Of a DNA stretch of 64,000 nt, positions 20,339-47,154 are shown in pieces; within the stretch, counting starts at the first letter, position 1, and each line of letters begins with the position of its first letter. The notes beneath the pieces are model-generated. The model worked only from the letters and a program-made list of their open reading frames with translations. It ran no database searches and was not told where the DNA came from. The stretch is from Cyrtodaria siliqua (lineage: Eukaryota > Mollusca > Bivalvia > Adapedonta > Hiatellidae): the NCBI GenBank assembly GCA_037043455.1, contig JAWPHD010000240.1, positions 310,001 through 374,000 of the forward strand. The letters run 5' to 3'. The position numbers were made by a program, and so were the translations under genes.

Positions 20339-20406
20339 CTACTGATTGTACCCATAGTGGACTGGATTCCCAGTGGATTGGGTGGATGACATCATCACAG
20401 TTGTCT
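20339..20406 (-). CDS. Last coding exon of a Shisa/CYYR1-like membrane protein
   Basis: The exon starts after a good acceptor (minus strand CTTATCTGTATTTCAG) and supplies two bases that complete the codon left open by the exon at 33687-33820. It then encodes 21 residues and a TAG stop. The tail ends STGNPVHYGYNQ: short, polar and tyrosine-containing, as is usual for cytoplasmic tails of small type I membrane proteins. The acceptor and first 26 nt of this exon are the template of the 46-bp minisatellite that starts immediately upstream. Phase agreement and the acceptor support it; no transcript is available here. Confidence 0.7.
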
Positions 20407-23065
20407 CTGAAATACAGATAAGTGGGGAGGACATTACAACAGCTGTGTATGAAATACATATATATATATATAAAGTGGGGGAGGACATTACAACAGCTGT
20501 TTGTGAAATACATATATAAGTGGGGAGGACATTACAACAGCTGTGTGTGAAATACATATATATAAGTGGGGAGGACATTACAACAGTGTGTGTGAAATAC
20601 ATATATATAAGGGGGGAGGACACTACAACAGCTGTTTGTGAAATACATATATAAGTGGGGAGGACATTACAACAGCTGTGTGTGAAATATATATATATAT
20701 AAGTGGGGAGGACATTACAACAGTGTATAAAATACATATATATAAAGGGGGAGGACATAACAACAATTGTCTGTGAAAAACAGATACACAAGGGTGTAGG
20801 ACATTACAACAGCGGTCTGTGAAATACAGAAATATAAGGATGGGAGGACATTACAACAGCTGTGTGTGAAATACAGATACATAAGGGTAGAGGACATTAC
20901 AACAGCTGTGTGTGAAATATAGATACATTAGGGTTGACATTACAACAGCTGTGTGTGAAATACAGAAATATAAGGATGGGAGGTCATTACAACAGCTGTG
21001 TGTGAAATACAGATACACAATGGTGGAGGACAGTACAACAGCTGTGTGTGAAATATAGATATATAAGGGGCAAGGACATTACAACAGCGGTCTGTGAAAT
21101 ACATATATATAAGTGGGGAGGACATTACAACAGATGTGTGCGAAATACATATATATAAAGGGGGAGGACATTACAACAACTGTCTGTGAAATACATATAT
21201 ATAAGTAGGGAGGACATTACAAGAGCGTGTGTGAAATACATATATATATAAGCGGGGAGGACATAACAACTGTCTGTGAAAAACAGATACATAAGGGTGT
21301 AGGACATTACAACAGCTGTCTGTGAAATACATATACATAAGAGTGGAGGACATTACAATAGCTGTCTGTAAAATACAGAAACATAAGGATGGGAGGACAT
21401 TACAACAGCTGTGTGTGAAATACAGATACATAAGACTGAAGGACATTACAACAGCTGTCTGCGAAATACAGATACATAAGGGTGGAGGACATTACAAAAG
21501 CTGTCTGTGAAATACATATATAAGTGCGGAGGACATTACAACAGCTGTATGAAATACATATATATATATATAAAGTGAGGAGGACATTACAACAGCTGTT
21601 TGTGAAATACATATATAAGTGGGGAGGACATTACAACAGCTGTGTGTGAAATACATATATATAAGAAGTGGGGAGGACATTACAACAGCTGTGTGTGAAA
21701 TACATATATATAAGGGGGGAGGACATTACAACAACTGTCTGTGAAATACAGAAATATAAGGATGGGAGGACATAACAGCTGTGAGTGAAATATAGATACA
21801 TAAGGGTGGAGGACATTACAACAGCTGTGTGTGAAACACAGATATATAAGGGTGTAGGACATTACAACAGCTGTCTGTGAAATACAGAAATATAAGGATG
21901 GGAGGACATAACAACAGCTGTTTGTGAAATATAGATACATAAGGGTGGAGGACATTACAACAGCTGTGTGTGAAATACAGATATATAAGGGTGGAGGACA
22001 TTACAACAGCTGTGTGTGAAATAGATATATAAGGGGTGAGGACATTACAACAGCTGTCTGTGAAATACAGATATATAAGTGGGGAGGACATTACAACAGC
22101 TGTCTGTGAAATACAGATACATAAGGGTGTAGGACATTACACCAGCTGTCTGTGAAATACAGATACATAAGGGTGTAGGACATTACACCAGCTGTCTGTG
22201 AAATACAGATACATAAGGGTGGAGGACATTACAACAGCTGTCTGCGAAATACAGATACGTAAGGGTGGAAGACATTAAAACAGATGTCTGCAAAATACAG
22301 ATACATAAGGGTGGAGGACATTACAACAGCTGTCTGCAAAATACAGATACATAAGGGGTGAGGACATTGCAACAGCGGTTTGTGAAATACAAATGTATAA
22401 GGGTGGAGGACATTACAACAGCGGTCTGTGAAATACAGATGTATAAGGGTGGGGACATTACAACAGGTGTCTGTGAAATAAAGATACATAAGGGTGGTGG
22501 ACATTACAACAGCTGTCTGTGAAATAAAGATACATAAGGGTGGAGGACATTACAACAGCTGTCTGTGAAATACAGATACATAAGGGAGGAGGTCATTACA
22601 ACAGCGGTCTGTGAAATACAGATATAAAAGGGTGGAAGACATTACAACAGCTGTGTGTGAAATACAGATACATAAGGGTGGAGGACATTACAACAGCGGT
22701 CTGTGAAATACAGATATATAAGGGTGGAGGACATTACAACAGGTGCCTGTGAAATACAGATACATAAGGGTGGAGGACATTACAACAGCTGTCTGTAAAA
22801 TACAGAAACATAAGGATGGGAGGACATTACAACACTGGTCTGTGAAATACAGATATATAAGGGTGGAGGACATTACAACAGCTGTCTGTGAAATATAGAT
22901 ATATAAGGGATGAGGACATTACAACAGGCGCCTATGAAATACAGATACATAAGGGTGGAGGACATAACAACAGCTGTCTGTGAAATACAGATACATAAGG
23001 GAAGAGGACAATACAATAGCTGTCAGTGAAATACAGATACATAAGGGTGGAGGACATTACAACAG
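20407..23065. repeat. 46-bp minisatellite, part 1, derived from an intron-exon junction
   Basis: Units of about 46 bp (GGTGGAGGACATTACAACAG then CTGTCTGTGAAATACAGATA then CATAAG). On the minus strand each reads CTGTATTTCACAG followed by ACAGCTGTTGTAATGTCCTC, which aligns with the real acceptor CTGTATTTCAG and the exon start AGACAACTGTGATGATGTCA. Each unit thus carries a potential 3' splice site plus the exon start. About 58 copies lie in this part. The first quarter uses a CATATATATAAGTGGGG variant. Confidence 0.95.
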
Positions 23066-23900
23066 CAGGGTTCGACACTAAGGCACGTCCGAACGACATT
23101 CACTGCCTGTACACAGGTCCGGGCTTGCGAATGTCCCAGGAACATGCCAGACCGGTCGTGTACAATAAGAACGGGACATTTACCCATAAAAAATGTTCTT
23201 TTAAAATTCCATTTAGTTCTGCGTGTAAAATACGTTTCACTCTCACAAAAACGATGAAGCCGTAGTTTGGTTTTTACAATATAGATTCACCTAACGTAAT
23301 GTGCATGCGCGACGGCTTCCCGAATTATTTATAACAAGCGGGTTTTCCATTCTCCATGCAGCGATAGAACTAACTGTAAAGGGAGTTAACTCTGTGTGGA
23401 TTTTAACATGTCGTAAAATATTGTCAAAGGTCTAGACACATCGTTTAATATCTAATCGATGCATACGATAATATACGCCTGTAACGAGTGCTAGCTAGAT
23501 ATTTTGCACATTTCAATTGAAAGTCGATCCTATTTTATGTGAAACAATATTGCGACATTTGAGACTCATTTCCATTTTGTCATACGGCAACCGCATTTGC
23601 CGATTTGTCAATGTTGAATATCCCCTTTCGAGATGCAAGAGATATGTCGCTGTATTGTTTATTCATAATTGCATCATACTATTATAAGTCCAAAACAGTT
23701 TATTAAATATAGTATTAAGCCTATTTAGAATAAATCATATTTGCGCATCTCCCCACACAAGAAACAAACGAGTTGCATAATAAATATAAAGATTTTAATA
23801 TAACTTGGTCAGGGCACATGAAACTTGGGTCAGGGCTAGTAGGTTCTGCATCTACTAGCCCGACCGGGCTAGTTGAAAAAAAAGTTAGTGTTGAGGCCTG
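23066..23900. mobile_element. hAT-like non-autonomous element inserted in the 46-bp array
   Basis: Ends CAGGGTTCGACACTAA and TTAGTGTTGAGGCCTG are inverted copies at 13 of 16 positions. AACAG flanks both sides (23061-23065, 23901-23905), a 5-bp target duplication of the array unit. A subterminal palindrome ACTAGCCCGACCGGGCTAGT lies near 23850. No transposase frame is present. Confidence 0.85.
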
Positions 23901-26575
23901 AACAGCTGTCTGTAAAATACAGAAACATAAGGATGGGAGGACATTACAACAGAGGTCTGTGAAATACAGATATATAAGGGTGGAGGACATTACAACAGCT
24001 GTGTGTGAAATACAGATATATAAGGGGTGAGGACATTACAACAGCAGTGTGTAAAATACAGATATATAAGGGTGAAGGACATAACAACAGCTGTCTGTGA
24101 AATACAGATACATAAGGGAAGAGGACATTACAATAGCTGTGTGTGAAATACAGATACATAAGGGTGGAGGACATTACAACAGCTGTGTGTGAAATACAAT
24201 ACTTAAGGGTGGAGGACATTACAACAGCTGTGTGTGAAATAGATATATAATGGGCGAGGACATTACAACAGCAGTCTGTGAAATACAGATAAATAAGCGT
24301 GGAGGATATTACAACAGCTGTCTGTGAAATACAGATACATAAGGGTGGAGGACATTACAACAGCGGTCTGTGAAATACAGATATATGAGGGGGAGGACAT
24401 TACAACAGCGCTCTGTGAAATACAGATACATAAGGATGGGAGGACATTACAACAGCTGTGTGTGAAATACAGATATATAAGGGTGGAGGACATTACAACA
24501 GCTGTGTGTGAAATACAGATATATAAGGGGTGAGGACATTACAACAGCAGTGTGTAAAATACAGATATATAAGGGTGAAGGACATAACAACAGCTGTCTG
24601 TGCAATACAGATACATATGGGAAGAGGACATTACAATAGCTGTCTGTGAAATACAGATACATAAGGGTGGAGGACATTACAACAGCTGTGTGTGAAATAC
24701 ATATATATAAGAAGTGGGGAGGACATTACAACAGCTGTGTGTGAAATACATATATATATAAGGGGGGAGGACATTACAACAACTGTCTGTGAAATACAGA
24801 AATATAAGGATGGGAGGACATAACAGCTGTTTGTGAAATATAGATACATAAGGGTGGAGGACATTACAACAGCTGTGTGTGAAATACAGATATATAAGGG
24901 TGTAGGACATTACAACAGCTGTCTGTGAAATACAGATATATAAGGGTGGAGGACATTACAACAGCTGTGTGTGAAATCGATATATAAGGGGTGAGGACAT
25001 TACAACAGCAGTCTGTGAAATACAGATAAATAAGAGTGGAGGATATTACAACAGCTGTCTTTGAAATACAGATACATAAGGGTGGAGGACATTACAACAG
25101 ATGTCTGTGGAATACAGATACATCAGGGTGTAGGACATTACAACAGCGGTCTGTGAAATACAGATATATAAGGGGTGAGGACATAACAACAGCTGTCTGT
25201 GAAATACAGATATATAAGTGGGGAGGACATTACAACAGCTGTCTGTGAAATACAGATACATAAGGGTGTAGGACATTACACCAGCTGTCTGTGAAATACA
25301 GATACATAAGGGTGTAGGACATTACACCAGCTGTCTGTGAAATACAGATACATAAGGGTGGAGGACATTACAACAGCTGTCTGCGAAATACAGATACGTA
25401 AGGGTGGAAGACATTAAAACAGCTGTCTGCAAAATACAGATACATAAGGGTGGAGGACATTACAACAGCTGTCTGCAAAATACAGATACATAAGGGTGGA
25501 GGACATTACAACAGCTGTCTGTGAAATACAGGTACATAAGGGGTGAGGACATTACAACAGCGGTCTGTGAAATACAGATGTATAAGGGTGGAGGACATTA
25601 CAACAGCGGTCTGTGAAATACAGATGTATAAGGGTGGAGGACATTACAACAGCTGTCTGTGAAATAAAGATACATAAGGGTGGTGGACATTACAACAGCT
25701 GTCTGTGAAATAAAGATACATAAGGGTGGTGGACATTACAACAGCTGTCTGTGAAATAAAGATACATAAGGGTGGTGGACATTACAACAGCGGTCTGTGA
25801 AATACAGGTACATAAGGGGTGAGGACATTACAACAGCGGTCTGTGAAATACAGATGTATAAGGGTGGAGGACATTACAACAGCTGTCTGTAAAATACAGA
25901 TATATAAGGGTGAAGGACATAACAACAGCTGTCTGTGAAATACAGATACATAAGGGAAGAGGACATTACAATAGCTGTCTGTGAAATACAGATACACAAG
26001 GGTGGAGGACATAACAACAGCTGTCTGTGAAATACAGATATATAAGGGGTGAGGACATTACAACAGCTGTCTGTGAAATACAGATACATAAGGGGTGAGA
26101 ACATTACAACAGCTGTCTGTGAAATAAAGATACATAAGGGGTGAGGACATTACAACAGCTGTCTGTGAAATACAGATATATAAGCGTGTAGGATATTACA
26201 ACAGCTGTCTGTGAAATATAGATATATAAGGGTGAAGGACATTACAACAGCTGTCTGTGAAATACAGATACATAAGGGTGGAGGACATTACAACAGCTGT
26301 CTGTGAAATACAGATACATAAGGGTGGAGGACATTACAACAGCTGTGTGTGAAATACAGGTACATAAGGGGTGAGGACATTACAACAGCTGTCTGTGAAA
26401 TACAGATATATAAGGGGTGAGAACATTACAACAGCTGTGAAATACAGATATATAAGGGTGTAGGATATTACAACAGCTGTCTGTGAAATACAGATATATA
26501 AGCTGGGTGGTGGTCATTACAACAGCGCTCTGTGAAATACAGTTACATAAGGGTATAGGACATTACAACAGATAT
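23901..26575. repeat. 46-bp minisatellite, part 2
   Basis: Continues part 1 with about 58 further units. Long blocks repeat those of part 1 in the same unit order: 21.66-21.75 kb recurs near 24.70-24.80 kb, and 22.09-22.33 kb recurs near 25.23-25.47 kb, so segments of roughly 1 kb have been copied. Units degrade after about 26450. Confidence 0.95.
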
Positions 26576-27914
26576 ATGCAGAGAATATTGCACAGCTGGA
26601 AGAATGTTTTTTCTAAGTATAACAAATTGTCATGTTACAATAATAGGAAATATACCTTTAATACAAATTGGAACCTATTATGCACCAATTGTATAGTAAC
26701 TGTTAATATGTGAGCTCTGGCCAATTATGGGATTATTTGCTATTGTTCTCTCTAGTAAATTATTCAGTTAGTGTCAGTTGGGTATGGTATTTGGAAGAAG
26801 TAAGATGGGTGAAATAGTAGCTGGAGGCCTGATATTCCTCCTTGGTTGTTGGGGTTAGAGTAGATGGACATATGTAACGGTTACCAGCATATCAACATAC
26901 AGCTATAGAATGGCCTAAGACATGAAATTGATAGAGTTTATATATGTAGGAAGATGTTAGTACATGCTGTAACATTAGTGCGAGTGCCAGTGTAGAAGTC
27001 CAGGGATAATGAACTGTATACTTCATGATGCATCTTGGATTGAGAGCGGTATATAACTGTGGAGGATATATAACGTGTGGAGTACAGTACAATTAGTGAA
27101 GTTTAGTTACTCACCACCATCTTGCGATGACGAGATACAATCCAGGGTTATGATCTAGTGAACTATATAACAATACAGTTGAACAATAACAGTGCATACT
27201 TTATCAGATTGACTTGAGTGATGTATCTACTTTGATTGTGTTTAAATTGTGTTTTGCGACTTAATATTTTCAATGTTTGTTTCTCCCTTATCTTCATTTA
27301 TACTTTTCCTTTCTATCTATCACTCCAAATAGTTATTCATTTTGAAATATACTTATTATATCTGATTGGTCAATACTTATCCATATAACAAATATACAGA
27401 TACAACTCTGTTGCACTAAGTTGACATGAAATTCATATCTGTAAACTGTGTCTTTTTTAAAATTAAATCTAACTGCGCACTTGATTTCTCACTATACCCT
27501 CTACTTTATGCACTGTATGCAATTAAGTTTATGAATCAGCCCATTGTCCCAATATAGGTTTCAGGTTACAGTGTGTTATTAATAAAGAACACCATTTTAC
27601 AGCAAAACAAGAACATGTATACACATATCAAATGATGAGGAAACATGTCATTTGGTAAGATGTATGGTCACGTGTGTGCCTGCATATACAGATTATGGAA
27701 AATAATAGAGATCAAAATAGGAGAACTAAATATATAAAGAATAATTAAAAGATACAAACAAATGTATCCATTATTAATTTTTTGGTCACCCATTTCAAAC
27801 AACCAAATTATCATGTTTAAAAATTAACGTAAAATCAGAAGATCATGTTATATAAATTTGTTTAGGTCCATTTATGTTTTACAATGTGACTAACACCATT
27901 ACAAGATACACACG
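26576..27914. other. Intron interior, nothing recognised
   Basis: AT-rich single-copy-looking sequence inside intron 2 of the minus-strand gene. No exon with fitting phase, RNA gene or transposon end is seen. Confidence 0.4.
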
Positions 27915-28260
27915 CGCAAATGGTTGAAAGTAATGGAAAAAAATAGCAAATTATTTTCAAATTTAGAACGAAAAAAGTCTGAAAATAAATCTTTATCACA
28001 TGTAAACGTCAATGACGAACAAAAAACTTATTATGAACAATTATATAAACAGGAAGAACATAAAACATCTAGTTATAATTTTTTTAACAACTCTATGAAA
28101 GTCTTAACTCAAGAAGAGAAAGGGAAATGTGATGGATTGTTAACAGAATCTGAATGTGCTGTTGCTCTTAAAGCAATGTAAAATAACAAAAGCCCTGGAT
28201 CAGATGTACTTACCACAGGGTTTTTTAAAGATTTTTTGAAATGACTTCGAAGCATTTTTA
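27915..28260 (+). pseudogene. LINE reverse transcriptase N-terminal fragment
   Basis: The frame reads KWLKVMEKNSKLFSNLERKK, later YYEQLYKQEE, then LTESECAVALKAM, a stop, and NNKSPGSD. These are the conserved blocks that precede and open the reverse transcriptase domain of L1/Tx1-like LINEs. The in-frame TAA at 28179-28181 and the missing palm motifs show it is dead. It is cut off at about 28265 by a copy of the 162-bp tandem family. It lies in sense opposite to the host gene, inside its intron. Confidence 0.75.
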
Positions 28261-28264
28261 TATA

Positions 28265-28610
28265 CATTCAAACGGTATTTAAAAATCCCTGCAGAGGTTG
28301 TGACGTTACGGACCGGACAAGAAATAGTGTACCTGTTTTTGACCTATGAACTTCAAGTGTGACCTTGACCTTTGAGGTAAGGACCTGGGTTTTGCGCGCG
28401 ACACATCGTCCTGTTATGGTGATCACTTGTGCCAAGTTATTTAAAAATCCTTGCATGGGATGTGACGTTACGGTCCGGACATGAAATTGCATACCTGTTT
28501 TTGACCTATGAACTTCAAGTGTGACCTTGACCTTTGAGGTACGGACCTGGGTTTTGCGCGCGACACATCGTCTTGTTATGGTGATCACTTGTGCCAAGTT
28601 ATTTTAGTAT
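28265..28610 (+). repeat. Two units of the 162-bp GTGACCTTGACC family
   Basis: Units match 3480-3900 closely (CTTCAAGTGTGACCTTGACC, TTGTGCCAAGTTATTT), with GCGCGCGACACATCGTC in place of GCGGGGGACACATCG. Same orientation as the first block. Confidence 0.85.
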
Positions 28611-28840
28611 TTAACCCATATAATGACCTCAGTGAGACCCTGACCTTTATATTTTAGTATGGTCTTGTCGATGTTGTCATGATGAGTATATATTGAAAGT
28701 TTGATGAAGAATATCAAGAAATGAGAAAGTTATAGCCAACGTAAGTTTTCGTGACTGACCGACTGACTGACGGATGGACTGATGGATGACAAAGTGACCT
28801 CTATATATCGCATTTTTTTCGAGAAGGTGGCACAAAAATT
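28611..28840. repeat. Right end of another dispersed repeat
   Basis: Contains GTGACTGACCGACTGACTGA and GATGGACTGATGGATGACA, then TTTTTTTCGAGAAGGTGGCA, the same kind of terminal as the other tandem families. The left end is absent. Confidence 0.5.
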
Positions 28841-28865
28841 GTTAGTACAATAGCTGTCTCTGTCT

Positions 28866-29046
28866 TTTTCTCAGATAACTTATTATATCAATATTAAACT
28901 ACAAAAAGATAACTAACTATATCAAACATTAAACTGCAAAAAGATAACTAATTATATCAAACATTAAACTACAAAAAGATAACTAATTATATCAAATATT
29001 AAACTACAAAAAGATAACTAATTATATCAAATATTAAACTACAAAA
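28866..29046. repeat. 35-bp AT-rich minisatellite, about five copies
   Basis: Unit contains AACTAATTATATCAAA and ATTAAACTACAAAAAGAT with few differences between copies. Confidence 0.9.
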
Positions 29047-29499
29047 TGTTGAATATCATGTATAAAACATACCGTGTGTAGTACCCCTTGAGCTTGTATA
29101 CCCACAACTTATAGTACATAAGAAATGCATAAAAAAACATATACATGTATGTTGCATATTATGAATAATTTTATATAATAGGTTTTGGTGTGCATTAATT
29201 AAGGCCAAAACAAAAAAAAAAATGTTTCCTGTAATGGACTGAAAAAAATAATTGGGAAGGCAGGTACCGGTATGCGTTTATTTTTATTTATATATTTGTT
29301 AAAATCAAGAATACTAACTTCAGGTAGATCGTTATTTGTTATGTGAAAACCTTCATTCAATCCGCAAAGAATAAGGTATGGTAAGAGAGTATTTTGGCCC
29401 CCAATATATTCAAAATGCAAAAAAATAGTATTTACATATAATCTTTTGCACATGTTGAAGTCAATTGATCATATTCTATCTTCAAAAGACATATTTATT
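29047..29499. other. Intron interior, nothing recognised
   Basis: AT-rich stretch without an identifiable feature. Confidence 0.3.
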
Positions 29500-30609: not shown

Positions 30610-30681
<72 letters not shown>

Positions 30682-32195: not shown

Positions 32196-32246
32196 TTTAT
32201 TATATACTCGCCGTCATAAGAAAGTATCCACTTATAAATATTGATA

Positions 32247-33686: not shown

Positions 33687-33820
33687 GTGGTACACCTGCA
33701 TGGACAATAACCCCTTGGGGACTTTTACGGCGAGAACCACAGCACCCACAGCAGCAGCAGCACGTGCAGAGGGCAATCAAGAGGATCAGTCCGCCAACAC
33801 CACCCACAATCGGTACCCAG
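33687..33820 (-). CDS. Transmembrane exon of a Shisa/CYYR1-like protein
   Basis: 134-nt exon between acceptor CTCCTTGTGACAG and donor CAC/GTAAGT. Its first base completes the codon left open by the ectodomain exon, and its last base opens the codon completed at 20406. It encodes WVP, then a transmembrane helix (IVGGVGGLILLIALC), then a cysteine cluster of eight Cys within ten residues (CTCCCCCGCC, partly a TGC repeat), then GSRRKSPQG. The basic stop-transfer residues after the cysteines place the C-terminus in the cytoplasm, and the Cys cluster at the membrane face is a likely palmitoylation site. The first 16 nt of the exon are part of the adjoining minisatellite unit. Confidence 0.75.
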
Positions 33821-36073
33821 CTGTCACAAGGAGACAACGAACATATAGTACAATATATTCACAATCGGTACCCAGCTGTCACAAGGAAACAACATACATA
33901 TAGCACAATATATTCAGAATCGGTTCACAGCTGTCACAAGGAGAAAACATACATACAGTACAATATATTCAAACTGGTACCCATGAGCTGTCACAAGGAG
34001 ACAACATACATATGGTACAATATATTCACAATATGTACCCAGCTGTCACAAGGAGACAACATACATATAGTACAATATATTCACAATATGTACCCAGCTG
34101 TCACAAGGAGATAACATACATATAGTACAATATATTCAAACTGGTACCCATGAGCTGTCACAAGGAGACAACATACATATGGTACAATATATTCACAATA
34201 TGTACCTAGCTGTCACAAGGAGACAACATACATATAGTACAATATATTCACAATATGTACCCAGCTGTCACAAGGAGATAACATACATATAGTACAATAT
34301 ATTCAAACTGGTACCCATGAGCTGTCACAAGGAGACAACATACATATGGTACAATATATTCACAATATGTACCCAGCTGTCACAAGGAGACAACATACAA
34401 ATAGTACAATATATTCACAATATGTACCCAGCTGTCACAAGGAGATAACATACATATAGTACAATATATTCACAATCGGTACCCAGCTGTCACAAGGAGA
34501 CAACATACATATAGTACAACATATTCACAATCGGTACCCAGCTGTCACAATCGGACACATACATATAGTACAATATATTCACAATCGGTACCCAGCTGTC
34601 ACAAGGAGACAACATACATATCGTACAAAATATTCACAATCGATACCCAACTGTCACAATCGAACACATACATATAGTACAATATATTCAAAATCGGTAC
34701 CTAGCTGTCACAAGGAGACAACATACATATAGTACAATATATTCACTATCGGTACCCAGCTGTCACAATCGGACATAAACATATAGTACAATATATTCAC
34801 AATCGGTACCCAGCTGTCACAATCGGACACATACATATAGTACAATATATTCACAATCGGTACCCAGCTGTCACAATCGGACACATACATATAGTACAAT
34901 ATATTCACAATCGGTACCCAGCTGTCACAATCGGACACAAACAATATATTCACAATCGGTACCCAGCTGTCACAAAGAGACAACATACATATAGTACAAT
35001 ATATTCAAACTGGTACCCATGAGCTGTCACAAGGAGACAACATACATATAGTACAATATATTCAAACTGGTACCCATGAGCTGTCACAAGGAGACAACAT
35101 ACATATAGTACAATATATTCAAACTGGTACCCATGAGCTGTCACAAGAAGACAACATACATATGGTACAATATATTCACAATATGTACCCAGCTGTCACA
35201 AGGAGACACCATACATATAGTACAATATATTCACAATATGTACCCAGCTGTCACAAGGAGATAACATACATATAGTACAATATATTCACAATCGGTACCC
35301 AGCTGTCACAAGGAGACAACATACATATAGTATAACATATTCACAATCGGTACCCAGCTGTCACAATCGGACACAAACATATAGTACAATATATTCACAA
35401 TCGGTACCCAGCTGTCACAAGGAGACAACATACATATCGTACAAAATATTCACAATCGATACCCAACTGTCACAATCGAACACATACATATAGTACAATA
35501 TATTCAAAATCGGTACCTAGCTGTCACAAGGAGACAACATACATATAGTACAATATATTCACTATCGGTACCCAGCTGTCACAATCGGACATAAACATAT
35601 ATTCACAATCGGTACCCAGCTGTCACAATCGGACACATACATATAGTACAATATATTCACAATCGGTACCCAGCTGTCACAATCGGACACATACATATAG
35701 TACAATATATTCACAATCGGTACCCAGCTGTCACAATCGGACACAAACATATAGTACAAACAATATATTCACAATCGGTACCCAGCTGTCATAAGAGACA
35801 ACATACATATAGTACAATATATTCACTATCGGTACCCAGCTGTCACAAGGAGACAACATACATATAGTACAATATATTCACAATCGGTACCCAGCTGTCA
35901 CAATCGGACACAAACATATAGTACAATACATTCACAATCGGTACCCAGCTATCACAAGGAGACAACATACATATAGTACAATATATTCACTATCGGTACC
36001 CAGCTGTCACAAGGAGACAACATACATATAGTACAATATATTCACAATCGGTACCCAACTGTCACAAGGAGAC
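33821..36073. repeat. 55-bp minisatellite, part 1, derived from the intron 1 acceptor
   Basis: Units of about 55 bp (CACAATCGGTACCCAGCTGT then CACAAGGAGACAACATACAT then ATAGTACAATATATT). On the minus strand each reads TTGTCTCCTTGTGACAG followed by CTGGGTACCGATTGTG, identical to the real splice acceptor and the first 16 nt of the transmembrane exon. About 41 units. A block at about 34585-34790 recurs at about 35398-35600 in the same order, an approximately 815-bp higher-order repeat. Confidence 0.95.
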
Positions 36074-36185
36074 CTGGGCTCTTCATTGGACCAAAAAATG
36101 TTTAGCCATTTTGGCTAAACCACCTCAATTTTCTTTAGCCAATGGGATTTTTGTTTAGCCATTTTTGGCTAAGCTTTTTTAGCCA

Positions 36186-36380
36186 TTTGTAACCCGGGCG
36201 GTCCCGTGTATCGGTCTATCCTCCGAGCACGTTAAAGAACCATAGGAATCTATTCGATAATAAGAGTAGGGCAGGTTCCCGGATTCCTATGTATCCTTCC
36301 CCTCTCTCTGGGGCGGCTTTTAAATAACCCATACTGTGTTGATGAGCCGTTAAACAACATTCAATTCAATTCAATTCAGC
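36186..36380 (+). mobile_element. SINE/LINE 3' end with ATTCA tail
   Basis: GCACGTTAAAGAACC, later GAGCCGTTAAACAAC and a tail ATTCAATTCAATTCAATTCA. A retroposon 3' end with pentanucleotide tail, nested in the hAT-like insertion. Confidence 0.65.
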
Positions 36381-36653
36381 CATTTTAGCAGAATTTCATA
36401 CAATCTCCGATTAAATATTTGTATAACTTTCTTATCATCAATATATATGTATATATATAAAACCAAGTTGAATGATATTAATTCTTTGACAGTTTCTAAC
36501 AGTTAGATGGTACCATGAACATGGTTAAAACTTTATTTTAATATGTTGCCTCTATTATCACCAATGCCTCTTTTATTTGTCACAGTTAAGGACATGTTCC
36601 AATGATGAATGTTGTAAGAAAACATAATTTTAAGCATACATGCAGGTTAATTT

Positions 36654-37822
36654 CAGGGCCTTTTTTCCTTCTATAAAAGAGGCCGATATTCGGTGACTTC
36701 CCAATTGCAAAAAGCCTCTTTTTTCCCAATTTTGGTGAAAGAATTTCCCAAAAATACAATGCTGAAATTCCCAATATGTTGACATATGATTCTCCCGAAA
36801 TCTATTTCACACGTTCGGTTAATAAAACTACATTATTTAGCAGCGAATGAAACCGAAAGCAGGCTTTTTATTGGCTTACCGAAATAAATATCCATTCAGA
36901 ATGACTCGGCACTGCACTGCAGTCCGCTTATGACCGAGATGTTACGATCTCTTGGCGCCATTTGTTTTGTTTAATGGAGAGAACGTGAACCGAACCGAGT
37001 TATTTTACGCGATTTATTAAACCGCATGTAGACTTGACGCGGTCGTCATTTCCTTATTATTTAATATTGAATCGTTTGAAATGTTATATAATTATTTTTT
37101 ATAAAAACTTAAAATTGATAAAAAAATAAAAAGTTTTTCTTAACCGAACACTGTAGAACATATTCTAACACGGTTGTCGTAAACAATATTTGAAAAAAAC
37201 AAGTACACCGTAAACAAAATGTGAGTAAAAAATGTCGAAAAACGGAAAATACTACAGAAAATCTGTTAAAATGGCTGCAGATCATGATAAAGGCCAGCGC
37301 AGCCTTTTGACCTCTGGTGTTAAAAGGACAAATTCCTTGACAACACAACTTGCCAAATCTCCGCCTACTGAAGTGCCGGGTCAGTCGGATTCGCAACTTG
37401 CGACGCAAGACCTCGTCGTCGATCTTCCGGTGTCTGAAGACCAGACAATCAACTCACCGGACTTCACACCCCCTGATATATCCGAGTTTCACTCTGTCTC
37501 ACCACCTGTGACAAGTACAACTCAGCCACCCCCCCCACATTACCCCTTACATCTGAGTCTCTCTCTGTCTCAACACCTTCAACATGCACAGATACTCTTG
37601 AATCATATGATGGCCGTAAAGCAGTTCTGCTGAAGTATGAACTCAGGCACCCATGGGTGTACCACAGTAGTGTCTATTTACTGTATGTATGTAGACTGCC
37701 ATTTGTTTATTGATGTATCTTGAAAGTCAGTCTACCTTTTCCCAATTTGGCCGAAAATTGCACTTGAATTTCCCAAAATGAAAGGCTAAGGCCCCTTCTC
37801 AATTTTTGGAAAAAAGGCCCTG
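36654..37822. mobile_element. Nested hAT-like element
   Basis: Perfect 15-bp inverted ends CAGGGCCTTTTTTCC and GGAAAAAAGGCCCTG, flanked by AATTT on both sides (36649-36653, 37823-37827), a 5-bp target duplication. It sits inside the element at 36074-38556 and carries one long open frame. Confidence 0.85.
37232..37633 (+). CDS. Unrecognised protein N-terminus inside the nested element
   Basis: 133-codon frame starting MSKNGKYYRKS. It has a basic N-terminus, then a polar Ser/Thr/Pro-rich region (VSEDQTINSPDFTPPDISEF) and a low-complexity end. No zinc-finger or DDE motif is visible. By position it could be the disordered N-terminus of the element's transposase gene, or a host gene piece captured by it. 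Composition is more protein-like than the surrounding sequence, but I cannot name a family. Confidence 0.4.
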   Translation: MSKNGKYYRKSVKMAADHDKGQRSLLTSGVKRTNSLTTQLAKSPPTEVPGQSDSQLATQDLVVDLPVSEDQTINSPDFTPPDISEFHSVSPPVTSTTQPPPPHYPLHLSLSLSQHLQHAQILLNHMMAVKQFC

Positions 37823-38556
37823 AATTTTTATGACCTTTTTATATGTTGGTGCCTCGTGAAACCCTTCAATCAATCAAACAATCAATCAATCAAGAAAGCA
37901 ACCAAGCATGTACCCATGATGGTAAAAACGGATGACACAGTTATAGTTCTGTTTTGTGTGGCCACGTATACAACTCGAAAGAAATGGCTTGCTTTCAATG
38001 CGCGAAAACAGATGACACTGTATTGTTTACATGTACGTATCATGGGCTACTTTCAGTTTTGAATAACGGAGTTACAATGTCATTATTTTAGTTAAAAGGG
38101 TGTAAATCTTTGTATGAGAAAGTTTAACTATTACCATTTTGATAATACGTCTTTGTTTCGTTTATGCGCTGTTTTGCGTTGTTGTTGAAAAATGCGACTT
38201 TTTTTCGGCGAGCTCTTGTTGGGTTTACAATTTTCCTCCAATGTAGGCACACCAAGTGAGTTGCAGTTAGACGTCGCTATGTCAAATAAGCCGTGTGTAA
38301 TATAAAGCGCAATTGTCGTAACACAGTCTATAGATTTTAGCTCTTCTGTAAACACCGAGAACCCGTCAAGGATTTTTCAGGAAAACATGGCCGCGCCCAC
38401 GAACTTGTTCCTTTCGCTACTTTCGCCAATACCAGCCGTCAGTTTACATGGGTTAAAATGACTTTAGCCAAATTGGCGAAAGCACTTGACAAAAGTTTCG
38501 CCATTTGCAATTTGATTTCGCCTATGGCGACAGGCGAAGGCAAATAAAGAGCCCAG

Positions 38557-39345
38557 GGAGACAACATATATATAGTACAATATATTCACAATCGGTACCC
38601 AGCTGTCATAAGGAGGTAACATACATATAGTACAATATATTCACAATCGATACCTAGCTGTCACAAGGAGACAACATACATATAGTACAATATATTCACA
38701 ATCGGTACCCAACTGTCACAATCGGACACATACGTATAGTACAATATATTCACAATTGGTACCCAACTGTCACAAGGAGATAACATACATATAGTACAAT
38801 ATATTCACAATCGGTACCCAGCTGTCACAAGGAGATAACATACATATAGTACAATATATTCAAAATAGATACCCAGCTGTCACAAGGAGACAACATACAT
38901 ATAGTACAATATATTCACAATCGGTATCCAGCTGTCACAAGGAGACAACATACATAATTATAGTACAATATATTCACAATCGGTACCCAGCTGTCACTAT
39001 CGGACACATACATATAGTACAATATATTCACAATCGGTACCCAGCTGTCACAAGGAGACAACATACATACAGTACAATATATTCACAATCGGTACCCAGC
39101 TGTCACAAAGAGAACATACATACAGTACAATATATTCACAATCGGTACCCAGCTATCACAAAGAGACAACATACATATAGTACAATATATTCACAATCGG
39201 TACCCAGCTGTCACAAGGAGACAACATACATATAGTACAATATATTCACAATCGGTACCCAGCTGTCACAAGGAGACAACATACATATAGTACAATATAT
39301 TCACAATCGGTACCCAGCTGTCACAAGGATACAACATACATATTG
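38557..39345. repeat. 55-bp minisatellite, part 2
   Basis: About 14 units identical in type to part 1, between the two hAT-like insertions. Confidence 0.95.
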
Positions 39346-40084
39346 CAGGGGATGAAATATATTTTACTGTATACTCGTGGCATTGACATGTTACTCGTCC
39401 TGCTCTGATTGTAAAACATCACAATTAACACTATTATATATAAATAAAACAAAGGGAAACATCATAATGTGTTGTTTTTTCTTTATATAAATCAATGAAA
39501 ATTATGAAACTTTGACGAGTATTATAGATGACTATATTCATATTCATATTCTATAGTTAACTACAGTCTGATCATGGCCATTACAGTTACTCTGGCATGG
39601 TATATATTTTCCCCCTTTTCCTGTAAAAAATTCCCGTCTTAAAAAAGAAAAATACTTTTTTTTATTAGAAAATGTTAAACTCCAATACAGGAAAACAGTA
39701 TACTTTTGCAATTTCCCTTCCTGAAGGCCCTGGCCCCAGTCACTTAAAAGCTGACTAGTATACTATTTGTATAACATCAAATACCGTAATGTTCGCGCTC
39801 CGTGAAATTAAACGGGAGCCGCATTTTAGGATGTCCCAAAACGGAAATGCGTCAATTTCCCAATATCCGGTTGACTTAAATTGCAGTTTATCGCTATTTT
39901 AACAGAGTTGCAACTATTTACTGCATTTAATCGCTTAATAAACTATGTAAGAACTATTTTCTTTGTTGTTGTTTACTACTGAAATGTTACTCGTCCTCTC
40001 GGACGACCGATTCATGGGTTACACTCGTCCGGATTTGAATTTCACTCGTTAATACGAGCGGACGAGTGGAATTTTCGTGCCCTG
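39346..40084. mobile_element. 739-bp hAT-like insertion in the 55-bp array
   Basis: Begins CAGGGGATGAAA and ends TTTTCGTGCCCTG, inverted copies with two to three mismatches. ATATTG flanks both sides (39340-39345, 40085-40090), a 6-bp target duplication. Several ACTCGTCC motifs occur near both ends. No transposase. Confidence 0.85.
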
Positions 40085-40870
40085 ATATTGTACAATATAT
40101 TCACAGTCAGAACCCAGCTGTCACAAGGAGACAACATACATAGTACAGTATATTCACAATTGGTACCCAGCTGTCACAAGGAGAAAACATACATCATACA
40201 ATATATCACAATCAGTACCCAACTGTTATAAGGAGACAACATAGTACAATATATTCACAATCGGTACCAAGCTGTCACAAGGGGACAACATACATATTAC
40301 AACATATTTACAATCAGTACCCAGCTGTCACAAGGAGAGATTTATACACAGTACAATATATTCCGAACTGGTACCCAGCTGTCACAAGAGAGACATGACA
40401 TACATAGTAGAATATATTCACAATCAGTACGGTCAGCTGTTACAAGGAGAAATAACATACACAGTAGAATATATTCACAATTGGTATCCTGCGGTTACAA
40501 GGAGAGAAAACATACATAGTACAACATATTTTACAATCGGTAATCAGCTCTTACAAGGAGAGACAACATATATAGTACAATATATTCACAATTGGTACAA
40601 AGCTGTTGCAAGGAGAGACAATATACATAGTATAATATGCTCACAACCGGTACCCAGCAGTCACATGGAGAGGTAACTTACATAGTAGAATATATTCACA
40701 ATCGGTACCCAGCTGTCACAGGGAGAGATAACATACATAGTACAATATATTCATAATCGGTACCCCGCTGTTACAAGAAGAGACAAAATATTCATAATCG
40801 GTACCCAGCTGTCACAAAGGGACAACATACATAGTAAAATATATTCACAATTGGTACCCAGCTGCCACAA
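40085..40870. repeat. 55-bp minisatellite, part 3, degraded
   Basis: About 13 diverged units with shortened CATACATAGTACAATATATT segments. The oldest-looking edge of the array, furthest from the exon. Confidence 0.9.
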
Positions 40871-42318
40871 GGTGAAATTAATCCTATCTGGCTGGTTTTC
40901 GAACTTGTCCGAGCTTTCATTGACATTAACAATCTAGAAATCTGGTAAAGATCAGATGAAAAATGAAGGCCCTATTGTCTTAACGAGACAAAAGTTAACG
41001 ACGGACGGACGACGCAGTAGAGCTAAAAATAAGGCCCTATTGTCTTAACGAGCCAACATATAGGATTTTTAACAAAATAAAGGGCCATCAGGCGCGTAGC
41101 CAGGCATACGCCCGTACGCCCGGGCTTACACTTCTTGGAAAAAAATGAGAAAACATAGTGCCCCAAAAATGCAATAAAAACTAAAGCCTGACTAGGGTGA
41201 GACCCATCATTAGAAATGTATAAACATATAAATATCAAAGTTATCAAAACAGATGCCATAAAATGGAAATTTCAATCTAAGATATTTGTTTTTCGCAACT
41301 ATATAATTTATTTATCAATCAATAAAAGCCATCATTTTCAGCCCAAAATCGTCAAAAGCAACGTGCGGACGCTGAGGGCTTGTTCGGAACAAATAAAAAA
41401 AAAGTTTTAGGGTCGACCACTTAAAAATAGGGTCGGTCGGGCCACCGGAAACACTGGTATTTTTTTGTTTGGCCTAAGCTCTGCTGGCCTTCGGCTAACA
41501 AGAGCCATAACTCCGGTGTTACTGATCCGATTTGGCTGGTTTTTGTCATTGTCCGAGTTTTCATTGATATTAACAATCTGTCCAAGTTTGGTAAAGATCA
41601 AATAATAAATGAAGGTGCTAGAGCGTTCACAAGGCTTAATATGGCATTTTTCAGGGCCGTAACTCTGGTGTTACTGATACGATTTGGCTGGTTTTCGAAC
41701 TTGCCCGAGCTTTCATTGATATTAACTATCTGTGCGAGTTTGGTAAACATCAAATAATAAATTAAGGTGCTAGTGTGTTCACAAGCCAGAAAATGACATT
41801 TTTCAGAAAAACTGTGGTGTTAATGACCCAATTGATGACATCAAATAATAAATGAAGGTGCTAGAGTGTTCATAAGGCTTAATATGGCACTTTTCAGGGC
41901 CATAACTCTGGTGTTACTGTTACTTTCATAGGCATTAACAATCTGTGCAAGTCTGGTAAAGATCAAATAATAAATGAAGGTGTTAGAGTGTTAACAAAGC
42001 AGAACATGGCATTTTTCAGAAAAACAAGGACCACAACTCCGGTGTTACTGATACAATTTGGCCGGTTTTCGAACATGCCCGAGCTTTCATTGATATTAAC
42101 CATCTGTGCGAGTTTGGTAAAGACCAAATAATAAATAAAGGTGTTAGTTTTCACAAGGCAGAAAAGGACATTTTTCAGGAAAATAAAGGGCCATAACTCC
42201 GGTGTTACTGAACCAAAATAGCTGTCTTTCAAACTTGTCCAAGCTTTCATTGGTATTAACAATCTGTGCAAGTTTGGTAAAGATCAAGTAATAAATGAAG
42301 GTGCCAGAGTGTTCACAA

Positions 42319-42671
42319 GGCCTAAAAAAAAATATGTGTGTTTCTGGTTTCACACTGTCAAAAAGTTAGGGTAGGTAGATAGGAAAAAGTTGTTTTTTTT
42401 AGATATTTTTTTTATATATATTGTTCGAATATATTATGCCATTTTTGTACTAAGGCAACTTCTTGATAACCTTTTCAAACAGTTTGGATCCAGATTAGAT
42501 GCTTAACAACTCGGGCTAATAAAATTATCAACAAAAATAAATAAATAAATAAATAAAATATATATATATATATATATTTTTGTTTTTTCATCTTGCTAAA
42601 AATATTTAGGGTCGGCGGTGAAAAAGCAGAGTTGGTTGGGAAACCGGAAACACATGTTGTTTTTTTAGGCC
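42319..42671. mobile_element. PIF/Harbinger-like MITE
   Basis: Ends GGCCTAAAAAAAAATATGTG and ACATGTTGTTTTTTTAGGCC are inverted copies that continue through GTTTCTGGTTTC and GAAACCGGAAAC. Flanking triplets CAA and TAA resemble a 3-bp target duplication. Confidence 0.7.
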
Positions 42672-42995
42672 TAAGGCAGAAAATGGCATTTCCCAGAAAA
42701 AACAAGGGTCACAACTCCGATGTTACTGATCCGATTTGGCTGGTTTTCAAATTTGTCCGAGTTTTCATTGATATTAACAATCTGTGCAAGTTTGATAAAG
42801 ATCAAATAATAAATGAAGGTGCAAGAGTCTTCACATGGCTTAATATGGCATTTTTCAGAAAAAACAAAGGCCATAACGCTGGTGTTACTAATCCAATTTG
42901 GCTGTTTTTCGAACTTGTCCAAGCTTTCATTGATGTTAACAATCTGTGCAAGTTTGGTAAAGATCAAATAATAAATGAAGGTGCTAGAGTGTTAA

Positions 42996-44036
42996 GGCCT
43001 AAAAAAATAATATGTGTGTTTCTGGTTTCACCCATGTCAAAAAGTTAGTGTAAGTAGCAGTGTCCAATCTAGGATCTAAAAAGCAGGGGGGATTTTCAAC
43101 CCTTCCTCAAAAAATGTGGGGGGATTTTCAAAAGTAAAGGGGGATGGGTTCAAACAAATCTATTACACCCTTTTCATAACACCATTTCGACTGGAAGTCG
43201 CATAATTTTGAATATTTTTGATTCCGAGTCTGCGCTCATAAATCTACTTTCGTTTTCAATACATTTGTCTGCATTTGACAGTCAAAATGAAGCATTACAA
43301 AATTAGCGATTTCCCGTAAACGAAATTTAAATGCCAAAACTTTCCGATATATCATCGTATTTTCTCATTTCTTAGCAACATTTAATGTAATTTGCCAATA
43401 ATAATTAATCAAAACGATTTAAAAACGAGAACAATGTGAAAACATTTGAAACGCAGATATTACGATCGATAAATTTCGTTAAATTTTTCTAAAATTCGTA
43501 TTACGCATTTAACCATTTGAATTTATAAGGGAGATAAGCACGCGGTTAACAATCAATTTGGACAACTCGGATTCGATCGCCTTGTTTTATACGTTTTCGT
43601 CAACAATTTATCGAAGCTCATTTTGGAAATAGACTTTGACAACCATTAAATCAGATCTAAATCAATCAATTCTGCACACGTTTAATTGAAAATAATGCGC
43701 GCGCTTGTCCCGCATCGATGCAAAAAACATGCGTGATCTTTGAAAAAAATGCGTGAATCGCGCAATCGCGCGTCCTAGATTGGACACTGAAGTAGGTAGG
43801 AAAAAGTGTTTTTTTTTAGATATTTTTTTTTATATATATATTGTTCGAATATATTATGCCATTTTTGTACTAAGGCAACTTCTTGATAACCTTTGCAAAC
43901 AGTTTGGATCCCGATTAGATGCTTAACAACTCTGGCTAATAATTTTTTTTTTTTATCTCGCTAAAAATATTTAGGGTCGGCGGTGAAAAAGTAGGGTCGG
44001 TCGGGAAACCGGAAACACATATTTTTTTTTTAGGCC
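42996..44036. mobile_element. PIF/Harbinger-like MITE carrying a nested hAT-like element
   Basis: Same ends as 42319-42671 (GGCCTAAAAAA ... TTTTTTAGGCC), flanked by TAA on both sides (42993-42995, 44037-44039). Two thirds of its length is the nested insertion at 43058-43789. Confidence 0.8.
43058..43789. mobile_element. 732-bp hAT-like element nested in the PIF-like MITE
   Basis: Perfect 17-bp inverted ends CAGTGTCCAATCTAGGA and TCCTAGATTGGACACTG. AAGTAG flanks both sides (43052-43057, 43790-43795), a 6-bp target duplication. No transposase frame. Confidence 0.88.
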
Positions 44037-44810
44037 TAACAAAGCAGAACATGACATTATTCAGAAAAAACAAGGACCATAATTCCCGTGTCACTGATAC
44101 GATTTGGCTGGTTTTCGAACTTTCATTGATATTAACAATCTGTGCGAGTTTGGTAAAAATCAAATCTTAAATGAAGGTGCTAGAGTGTTTACAAGCCAGA
44201 AAATGTCATTTTTCAGAAAAAACAAGGGTCATAACTGTGGTGTTAATGACCCAATTTAGCTGTTTTTCCAACTTGTCCAAGCTTTCATTGGTATTAACAA
44301 TCTGCATGAGTTTGGTAAAGACCAAATAATAAATGATGGTGCTAGTGTTCACAAGGCAGAAAATGACATTTTTCAGGAAAATAAAGGGCCATAACACGGG
44401 TGTTACTGACCCAAAATAGCATTTTTTTCGAACTTGTCCAAGCTTCATTGGTATTAACAATCTGCAAGTTTGGGAAAGATCAAGTAATAAATGAAGGTGC
44501 CAGAGTGTTAACAAGGCAGAAAATGGCATTTTTCAGAAAAAACAATGGCCACAACTTCGATGTACTGATCCGATTTGGCTGGTTTTCAAACCTGTTAGAG
44601 CTTTCGTTGATATTAACAATCTGTGCAAGTTTGGTAAAGATCAAATAATAAATGAAGGTGCTAGTCTTCACAAGGCTTAATATGGCATTTATTAGCAAAA
44701 CAAGGGCCATAACTCCCGTGAAATTAATCCGATCTGGCTGGTTTTCAAACTTTGAGCTTTCATTGATAAAAAGAAACTGGTAAAGTTTCATAAAGATCCG
44801 ATTAATAATG

Positions 44811-45000
44811 AAGGCCCTAGAGTGTGGCCCAGGAATAACAACACAAGCAATGGCCCAGGAACAACAACAGAATCAATGGACCAGGAATAACAACCCAAGC
44901 AATGGCCCAGGAATAACAACACAAGCAATGGCCCAGGAACAACAACAGAATCAATGGCCCAGGAATAACAACACAAACAGTGGCCCAGGAACAACAACAG
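44811..45000. repeat. 26-bp minisatellite, about seven copies
   Basis: Units alternate between GGCCCAGGAATAACAACACA and GGCCCAGGAACAACAACAGA, each followed by AGCAAT or ATCAAT, so the higher-order period is 52 bp. Adjoins the donor-derived array. Confidence 0.9.
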
Positions 45001-46934
45001 AAGCAGTGGCCCCAATAGTATGCAGAATCCTACATAAGGCTTACATATTCACCAGAAGCAGTGGCCCCAACATTATGCAGAATCCTACATAAGGCTTACA
45101 TATTCACCAGAAGCAGTGGCCCCAACATTATGCAGAATCCTAAATAAGGCTTACATATTCACCAGAAGCAGTGGCCCCAACATTATGCAGAATCCTAAAT
45201 AAGGCTTACATATTCACCAGAAGCAGTGGCCCCAACATTATGCAGAATCATAAATAAGGCTTACATATTCACCAGAAGCAGTGGACCCAACATTATGCAG
45301 AATCCTACATAAGGCTTACATATTCACCAGAAGCAGTGCCCCAACATTATATAGAATCCTACATAAGGCTTACATATTCACCAGAAGCAGTGGCCCCAAC
45401 ATTATGCAGAATCCTTAATAAGGCTTACATATTCACCAGAAGCAGTGGCCCCAACATTATGCAGAATCCTAAATAAGGCTTACATATTCACCAGCAGCAG
45501 TGGCCCCAACATTATGCAGAATCCTAAATAAGGCTTACATATTCACTAGAAGCAGTGGCCTCAACATTATGCAGAATCCTAAATAAGGCTTACATATTCA
45601 CCAGAAGCAGTGGCCCCAACATTATGCAGAATCCTAAATAAGGCTTACATATTCACCGGAAGCAGTGGCCCCAACATTATACAGAATCTTACATAATGCT
45701 TACATATTCACCAGAAGCAGTGGCCCCAACATTATGCAGAATCCAAATAAGGCTTACATATTCACCAGAAGCAGTGGCCCCAACATTATGCAGAATCCTA
45801 CATAAGGCTTACATATTCACCAGAAGCAGTGGCCCCAACATTATGCAGAATCCTACATAAGGCTTACATATTCACCAGAAGCAGTGGCCTCAACATTATG
45901 CAGAATCCTAAATAAGGCTTACATATTCACCAGAAGCAGTGGCCCCAACATTATGCAGAATCCTACATAAGGCTTACATATTCACCAGAAGCAGTGGCCT
46001 CAACATTATGCAGAATCCTAAATAAGGCTTACATATTCACCAGAAGCAGTGGCCCCAACATTATGCAGAATCCTACATAAGGCTTACATATTCACCAGAA
46101 GCAGTGGCCCCATCATTATGCAGAATCCTACATAAGGCTTACATATTCACCAGAAGCAGTGGCCCCAACATTATGCAGAATCCTAAATAAGGCTTACATA
46201 TTCACCAGAAGCAGTGGCCCCAACATTATGCAGAATCCTACATAAGGCTTACATATTCACCAGAAGCAGTGGCCCCAACATTATGCAGAATCCTAAATAA
46301 GGCTTACATATTCACCAAAATCAGTGGCCCCAACATTATGCAGAATCCTACATAAGGCTTACATATTCACCAGAAGCAGTGGCCCCAACATTATGCAGAA
46401 TCCTACATAAGGCTTACATATTCACCAGAAACAGTGGCCCCAACATTATGCAGAATCCTACATAATGCTTACATATTCACCAGAAGCAGTGGTCCCAACA
46501 TTATGCAGAATCCTAAATAAGGCTTACATATTTACAAAAAGCAGTGGCCTCAACATTATGCAGAATCCTAAATAAGGCTTACATATTCACCAGAAGCAGT
46601 GGCCCCAACATTATGCAGAATCCTACATAAGGCTTACATATTCACCAGAAGCAGTGGCCCCAACATTATGCAGAATCCTACATAAGGCTTACATATTCAC
46701 CAGAAGCAGTGGCCCCAACATTATGCAGAATCTTACATAAGGCTTACATATTCACCAGAAGCAGTGGCCTCAACATTATGCAGAATCTTACATATTCACC
46801 AGAAGCAGTGGCTCCAACGTTATGCAGAATCTTACATATTCACCAGAAGCAGTGACCCCAACGTTATGCAGAATCTTACATATTCACCAGAAGCGGTGGC
46901 CCCAACGTTATGCAAAATCTTACATAAGGCTTAC
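45001..46934. repeat. 55-bp minisatellite derived from the intron 1 donor
   Basis: About 35 units of 55 bp (CTTACATATTCACCAGAAGC then AGTGGCCCCAACATTATGCA then GAATCCTACATAAGG). On the minus strand each reads GTGAATAT/GTAAGCCTTATGTA, matching the exon's own CAGAATAT/GTAAGCCTTATGTA junction. The array starts at the donor itself, so each unit carries a potential 5' splice site. The last four units near the exon are shortened to about 40 bp. Confidence 0.95.
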
Positions 46935-47154
46935 ATATTCTGTGCTATCCAGCTTTCCAGGCACTCCTCTGTTCTCTGCTCCGATGGGATACGTAGCAAT
47001 TCGTTGCTGCAGCATGATTTTTTCAAGTTGACTCCTTTCGAAAATGAAGCGGAGCCTTCAATACAACAGAAGTCAGAGCACAGGGAAGTTTTATGTACAT
47101 TCCCCTGCAGGTCGGTGTAGGCTGGGCAACATTCTGCAGCATCGGACACGTGAC
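46935..47154 (-). CDS. Cysteine-rich ectodomain exon of a Shisa/CYYR1-like protein
   Basis: 220-nt exon between a strong acceptor (GTTCTTTTTTCAG) and donor AT/GTAAGC. It begins with two bases finishing a codon, then 72 codons, then two bases left for the next exon. It encodes eight cysteines, pattern CC (8,9), C (25), CC (29,30), CC (47,48), C (64), with CCPAYTDLQGNVH resembling the Cys-x-Tyr-x-Asp-x-x-Gly-x-x-His start of Shisa domains. Followed by a transmembrane exon, this reads as an extracellular disulphide-bonded domain. The signal peptide exon upstream is not identified and may lie beyond the window. Shisa versus CYYR1-like assignment is tentative; the exon itself is well supported by splice sites, phase and composition. 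Confidence 0.75.

What the first reader, a model, noticed from the sequence alone, without database searches (positions are those of the whole stretch)
20339..47154. Every large minisatellite of one gene is built from its own splice junctions
Three exons with matching phases define a minus-strand gene. The array beside exon 20339-20406 repeats that exon's acceptor plus exon start. The array beside exon 33687-33820 repeats that acceptor plus 16 nt of exon. The array beside exon 46935-47154 repeats that donor. All three start at the junction and spread into the intron, adding roughly 35 donor copies and about 180 acceptor copies. Three independent cases in one gene are hard to explain by chance. 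A junction-triggered process could be responsible, such as R-loop- or splicing-linked replication slippage, or repair of a break at the junction. I do not know of a described system of this kind.
Basis: partly seen in the sequence, partly recalled or inferred. Interest (0 to 1): 0.93.

Follow-up and report, generated by a model that had tools for sequence, protein, structure and literature searches.

The report
Splice junctions multiplied into intron repeats
In a mollusc-like genome, three splice junctions of one small membrane-protein gene have been copied in tandem into long intron repeats; this is real, of a kind already described in lancelets, and occurs in other genes of the same genome.

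Summary
A minus-strand gene (exons 47154-46935, 33820-33687, 20406-20339) carries three tandem arrays whose units contain its own donor or acceptor. A Mercenaria homologue (46% identity) aligns across both exon joins. A second contig, probably the other haplotype, has the same junction arrays at very different copy numbers: donor array 158 versus 36, e2 acceptor array 7-9 versus about 70.

The kind is known: "mirages", minisatellite-like duplications of intron-exon boundaries in amphioxus. It is not special to this gene: 13 of 241 junctions sampled in myosin, chaperonin and kinesin genes of this genome are spanned by such arrays.

A junction-triggered process is weakly supported. The excess is 2.2-fold over deeper intron positions (p 0.009) but 1.3-fold over positions 30-120 nt from the exon (p 0.21), and recent growth is not consistently at the junction. 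One nascent case shows a 29-bp duplication across a donor, between short direct repeats visible in an unduplicated paralogue. Best reading: slippage duplications that covered a junction, expanded as ordinary minisatellites and tolerated because the outermost site survives.

The parts
46935..47154 (-). exon e1 (220 nt), cysteine-rich part; acceptor TTTTTTCAG, donor TAT|GTAAGC
   Evidence: homologue P0001
44998..46940 (-). array A3: ~36 copies of a 55-bp unit (three 44-bp variants near the exon) carrying the e1 donor; covers the last 6 nt of e1
33687..33820 (-). exon e2 (134 nt), hydrophobic and Cys-rich segment
33805..36073 (-). array A2, main block: 55-bp unit with the e2 acceptor plus 16 nt of e2
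36074..38556 (.). insertion in A2 with inverted-repeat ends CCTGGGCTCTT (borders approximate); only a 73-bp match elsewhere in the haplotig
   Evidence: ends read by eye
38557..39343 (-). array A2, second block
39344..40089 (.). insertion in A2 with short inverted-repeat ends (CAGGG/CCCTG), no match in the haplotig; borders approximate
   Evidence: ends read by eye
40090..40871 (-). array A2, third block, less regular
20339..20406 (-). last coding exon e3 (68 nt, ends in TAG)
20380..23066 (-). array A1, exon-proximal block: 46-bp unit with the e3 acceptor and 22-of-27 similarity to the e3 start
23067..23900 (.). insertion in A1 with inverted-repeat-like ends (CAGGGTTCGACACTAA), no match in the haplotig; borders approximate
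   Evidence: ends read by eye
23901..26571 (-). array A1, second block

Best explanation
These are mirage-type minisatellites. A segment of about 45-55 bp that happened to cover a splice junction was duplicated in tandem, most likely by slippage between short direct repeats. The duplicate then expanded and was homogenised like any minisatellite (slippage, unequal exchange, gene conversion). The exon side is held fixed by purifying selection, so copies accumulate only in the intron, and the outermost donor or acceptor remains the true one. The copies are splicing decoys that the cell must ignore. Shown here: the units contain the junctions, copy number differs greatly between two probable haplotypes, the same thing occurs at other genes of this genome, and one nascent case has unduplicated paralogues. 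Inferred: slippage as the seed for this gene's three arrays, decoys unused in mRNA, and no junction-specific trigger.
For: Unit-by-unit alignment. Copy number in the probable haplotig C15285: A3 158 versus 36 (TRF), A2 7-9 versus about 70, A1 88 versus 116 usable units, at the same exon borders; flank 97.3-97.9% identical over w11.9-17.4k. Similar arrays at 13 of 241 junctions of myosin, chaperonin and kinesin genes. Minisatellites are dense near exons in general: 14.4% of 69,854 bp around 24 myosin loci, 5.4% of 44,510 bp in 20 chaperonin stretches. Nascent case: myosin paralogues L031/L032 have TCATTGAAAAG|GTGCG... followed 29 bp later by TCATTTAAA; L035 has that 29-bp segment 2.3 times, and L037 is also unduplicated. 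Donor GT in the copies is not more conserved than the rest of the unit (34 of 55 windows as conserved in the window array, 43 of 55 in the haplotig), so donor copies show no sign of selection to stay functional. Reading into A3 meets TAA after one codon; using the next A2 acceptor upstream meets an in-frame stop, so used decoys would break the protein.
Against: A residual excess at junctions remains against deeper intron (2.2-fold, p 0.009; in the 199 scripted junctions 3.2-fold with at least 2.5 copies, p 0.0024; 3.0-fold with at least 5 copies, p 0.0096). The acceptor AG of A2 is among the best conserved parts of its unit (4 of 55 windows as good). Haplotig A3 and A2 as a whole are youngest at the junction (rho 0.62 and 0.56). 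Only one nascent case with unduplicated paralogues was seen. No RNA data.
Confidence: 0.66

Rival explanations
1. A junction-triggered mutational process: co-transcriptional R-loops, spliceosome-linked strand breaks or their repair duplicate DNA at splice sites, so arrays are born there preferentially.
For: 13 of 241 junctions spanned versus 6.0 expected from 60-260 nt into the intron; 8 donors and 5 acceptors among the 13; one myosin exon has arrays at both ends (L069); this gene has 3 of 5 junctions hit; haplotig A3 and whole A2 youngest at the junction.
Against: No clear excess over positions 30-120 nt away (1.3-fold, p 0.21); none in chaperonin genes at the main setting (1 of 90 versus 1.43); A1 of the window is oldest at the junction (rho -0.29), window A3, haplotig A1 and the main block of A2 taken alone show no trend; the nascent case is explained by short flanking direct repeats.
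Confidence: 0.15
2. Exon-proximal chromatin or recombination: minisatellites are favoured near exons in general (open chromatin, recombination initiation), and junction-spanning arrays are the edge of that distribution.
For: Arrays are denser 30-120 nt from exons (0.051 per myosin junction) than at 60-260 nt (0.032). Near misses, read by eye: arrays beginning about 35 nt (L044), 60 nt (L029) and 11 nt (L085) into the intron, or ending 4 nt short of the acceptor (L109).
Against: Flanks were at most 1.5 kb, mostly 0.3 kb, so there is no far-intron baseline; no recombination map.
Confidence: 0.12
3. Function: the repeated splice sites regulate splicing of the gene as decoys or slow removal of the intron, and are kept by selection.
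For: A2 AG kept in 67 of 69 usable units; donor GTAAG kept in 33 of 36 window units.
Against: Donor positions are not better conserved than the rest of the unit, and GTAAG is kept in only 117 of 154 haplotig units; copy number differs many-fold between the probable haplotypes. In A1 the aligned AG is lost in 42 of 116 units, though by eye many of these keep another AG 4 nt on.
Confidence: 0.04
4. Assembly artefact: arrays created or inflated by mis-assembly.
For: Fragmented assembly, 26,948 contigs.
Against: The same junction arrays with different internal structure stand on two contigs; other genes show them. Exact lengths may still be wrong.
Confidence: 0.03

Closest known systems
Amphioxus 'mirages' (Adh3, globins BflGb6 and BflGb9, PGBD5; passages of PMC3087553 and PMC3902484 seen, not the whole papers)
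   Same: Tandem duplications spanning an exon-intron boundary, at 5' or 3' sites, many but not all copies keeping AG or GT, copy number different between haplotypes
   Different: Reported there in lancelets, with 6 and 3 units of 150-160 bp in the two BflGb6 haplotypes and 10-72 bp units in Adh3; here a mollusc-like genome, up to about 158 copies, and an intron with arrays at both ends
Intron gain by tandem duplication (Rogers model and human tandem arrays of Zhuo 2007, both known to me here only as cited in PMC3087553)
   Same: Duplicated stretches carry splice sites
   Different: No new intron is evident here; the copies sit inside existing introns
Ordinary intronic minisatellites
   Same: Unit size, concerted turnover, length polymorphism
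   Different: The unit includes a splice junction and a few exon bases

Membership tests
mirage minisatellites | repeat unit spans an exon-intron boundary | tested here: met
   6 nt of e1, 16 nt of e2, 22-of-27 similarity to the e3 start
mirage minisatellites | length variation between haplotypes | tested here: met
   (allelism inferred from a colinear contig; a recent duplicate is not excluded)
mirage minisatellites | many, not all, copies keep GT or AG | tested here: met
   A3 33 of 36, haplotig A3 121 of 154, A2 67 of 69, haplotig A2 7 of 7, A1 74 of 116, haplotig A1 68 of 85
mirage minisatellites | normal mRNA despite decoys | not testable with these tools
   no RNA; the homologue's protein matches the spliced product
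mirage minisatellites | somatic instability (reported for Adh3) | not testable with these tools
   no reads; the founding paper PMC117041 is not held
intron gain by tandem duplication | a new intron bounded by duplicated sites in former exon | tested here: inconclusive
   protein aligns through both joins; homologue's gene structure and intron ages unknown

The most novel reading that the evidence does not exclude
Splice junctions are a genome-wide seed for tandem duplication in this animal: something tied to transcription or splicing marks junctions for duplication, so about one junction in twenty of conserved genes has become a minisatellite of itself, and the splicing machinery picks the outermost of up to about a hundred identical donors.
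Probability: 0.15. Interest if true: 0.85.

Novelty: new member of a known kind. Interest (0 to 1): 0.47.

Why it matters
It takes a curiosity known from a few lancelet genes to what looks like a common feature of a mollusc-like genome (13 of 241 sampled junctions in three gene families), with copy numbers far higher than in the globin mirages. One probable allele holds 111 exact occurrences of the true donor 9-mer, a natural test of how the spliceosome chooses between identical sites, and of whether splice sites seed tandem duplication.

Tried and rejected
Chance matches: rejected; the units are many-fold repeated and present on two contigs. Junction-driven growth: tested by turnover polarity, inconsistent between arrays. 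Selection on decoys: no excess conservation of donor sites, some for the A2 acceptor. Upstream first exon: a search of the minus strand upstream of e1, to 20 kb beyond the window, for a short hydrophobic ATG exon with a GTRAG donor of fitting phase found none. Pfam gives no family for the product. Placing the organism: a BBS10-like protein of G000 gave unnamed best hits at 34-38% and named ones from Patella (29%) and Liolophura (25%); this gene's product hits Mercenaria at 46%. So a mollusc is likely; the species is unknown. Literature: nine searches of a library of open-licence papers (listings and starts of abstracts seen) showed no report of junction arrays in molluscs; only searches had mollusc words. 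Passages of an earthworm metallothionein paper (PMC12783039) speak of first-intron minisatellites but not of junctions.

Sampling: myosin 57 of 79 matches, chaperonin 48 of 68, kinesin 21 of 127. Left out were matches judged allelic by contig and profile position (among them loci L020, L023, L027, L032, L034, L046), one chaperonin match (second exon in L094), and others not fetched. Junctions were called by script with a donor matrix recalled from memory; 11 of 210 were dropped as weak (donor below 0, acceptor below 6), leaving 199. L043's acceptor was set by hand to the last copy. The kinesin set was pre-specified but could not be run as written: 21 of 90 chosen exons were fetched, with 130-nt flanks, and judged by eye, with 42 junctions taken as two per exon and expectations borrowed from the other two families. 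The p values are one-sided Poisson and treat paralogous junctions as independent. The paralogue search with this gene's own protein did not complete, and a dynein search was not repeated.
Full report
Observation. The spliced product is a small cysteine-rich protein with one hydrophobic segment; it aligns over 99% of its length, through both joins, with an uncharacterised Mercenaria mercenaria protein (46% identity). Pfam names no family. Five junctions could be examined; three carry arrays (e1 donor, e2 acceptor, e3 acceptor), two do not (e1 acceptor, e2 donor).

Arrays. A3 begins with the last six bases of e1 and repeats GAATAT|GTAAGCC... about 36 times; the exact donor 9-mer TATGTAAGC occurs 33 times in the A3 region, the true site included. 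A2 repeats ...CTTGTGACAG|CTGGGTACCGATTGTG, 16 bases of e2; it runs from 33805 to 40871 as one array interrupted by two insertions with inverted-repeat ends. A1 repeats the e3 acceptor with 22 of 27 exon-like bases. The intron between e1 and e2 therefore has an array of its donor at one end and of its acceptor at the other.

Second copy. The window lies at C240:310001-374000 of a 2.88-Gb assembly. Contig C15285 (56 kb) is colinear with it on the opposite strand. Identity is 97.3-97.9% over w11.9-17.4k and 81-97% in the other aligned pieces, many of them repeats; the exons are 97.3, 97.0 and 100% identical. I take it for the other haplotype; a recent duplicate is not excluded. It has the same three arrays on the same exon borders: A3 with 158 copies by TRF (154 of 165 aligned units usable), A2 with 7-9, A1 with 88 usable units. 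There the e1-e2 intron (9.1 kb) is nearly all array, and the exact donor 9-mer occurs 111 times. One A2 copy there carries 41 bases of e2.

Is it special to this gene? No. I sampled exons found by Pfam profiles in the same genome, without regard to repeats: 57 myosin and 48 chaperonin exons, later 21 kinesin exons. Arrays (10-120 bp units, edge at most 45 nt inside the exon) span 10 of 109 myosin junctions and 1 of 90 chaperonin junctions and, by eye, 2 of 42 kinesin junctions. Examples: L021 donor (80 bp, 19 copies up to the end of the stretch), L041 acceptor (21 bp), L043 acceptor (54 bp), L069 both ends, L086 acceptor (47 bp, 7 copies), L097 donor (41 bp, 8.5 copies), L050 donor (48 bp, 6.4 copies), L100 and L104 donors; the smallest are L075 (2.0 copies), L035 (2.3) and L079 (2.7). 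Together 13 of 241, 5.4% (95% interval 2.9-9.0%).

Is it more than chance? Minisatellites are very common here: 14.4% of the sequence at 24 myosin loci and 5.4% at 20 chaperonin stretches. Compared with positions 60-260 nt into the intron, junctions are spanned 2.2 times as often in the 199 scripted junctions (11 versus 4.95, p 0.013; myosin 10 versus 3.52, p 0.0035; chaperonin 1 versus 1.43), 3.2 times with at least 2.5 copies (9 versus 2.79, p 0.0024), and 2.2 times with kinesins added (13 versus 6.0, p 0.009). Compared with positions 30-120 nt in, the excess is 1.3-fold and not significant (p 0.21; myosin alone 10 versus 5.6, p 0.059). The p values treat junctions as independent, which paralogues are not. 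So arrays crowd near exons; a sharp preference for the junction itself is not established.

How it arises. The clearest clue is L035. Its paralogues L031, L032 and L037 have one copy of the exon end and donor. In L031/L032 the segment TCATTGAAAAG|GTGCGTATGAATAACTAA is followed 29 bp on by TCATTTAAA; in L035 the 29-bp segment is present 2.3 times. That is what slippage between short direct repeats gives. Growth afterwards looks like ordinary minisatellite turnover: haplotig A3 and A2 as a whole are youngest at the junction (rho 0.62, 0.56), window A1 is oldest there (rho -0.29), window A3, haplotig A1 and the main A2 block alone show no trend. Donor positions in the copies are not better conserved than the rest of the unit; the A2 acceptor is.

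Consequence. Read-through into A3 meets a stop after one codon, and use of the next A2 acceptor upstream brings a stop in frame. The copies would harm the product if used, yet many are identical to the true site over the donor 9-mer; so the choice must rest on more than the local site, perhaps exon definition (inference).

Known kinds. [quoted passage not shown] The founding Adh paper was not held. Nine searches of an open-licence library, three of them with mollusc words, showed no report in molluscs; that is not proof of absence. I file this as a new member of a known kind, in what is probably another phylum and at much higher copy number.

Verdict. Real and of a known kind; the junction trigger is possible but unproven. 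What is worth following is its frequency in this genome and the splice-site choice problem it poses.

Noticed in passing
window 781-2142: Another large minisatellite, 51-bp unit x 26.7, outside this gene; the unit is a multiple of three and leaves long open frames on both strands; not tied to a known exon.
   Followed up: no
window 8096-11169 (minus): Open frames that look by eye like the gag and pol of a retroelement, split over several frames; described only.
   Followed up: no
window 52416-53095 (minus): Open frames resembling by eye the end of a non-LTR reverse transcriptase.
   Followed up: no
window 41504-44768, 55950-56556: Arrays of a ~160-bp unit; they recall the bivalve satellite BIV160 (from memory, not compared).
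   Followed up: no
window 44825-45012: A 26-bp array (7 copies) abuts the far end of A3.
   Followed up: no
L100 and L099 (C9498:26784-30783): A kinesin donor array at one exon and a similar unit just before a later exon's acceptor; the stretch between may hold more donor copies (not fetched).
   Followed up: partly
L069 (C183:336619-336771): A myosin exon with arrays of its acceptor and of its donor, the donor unit holding 41 nt of exon.
   Followed up: partly
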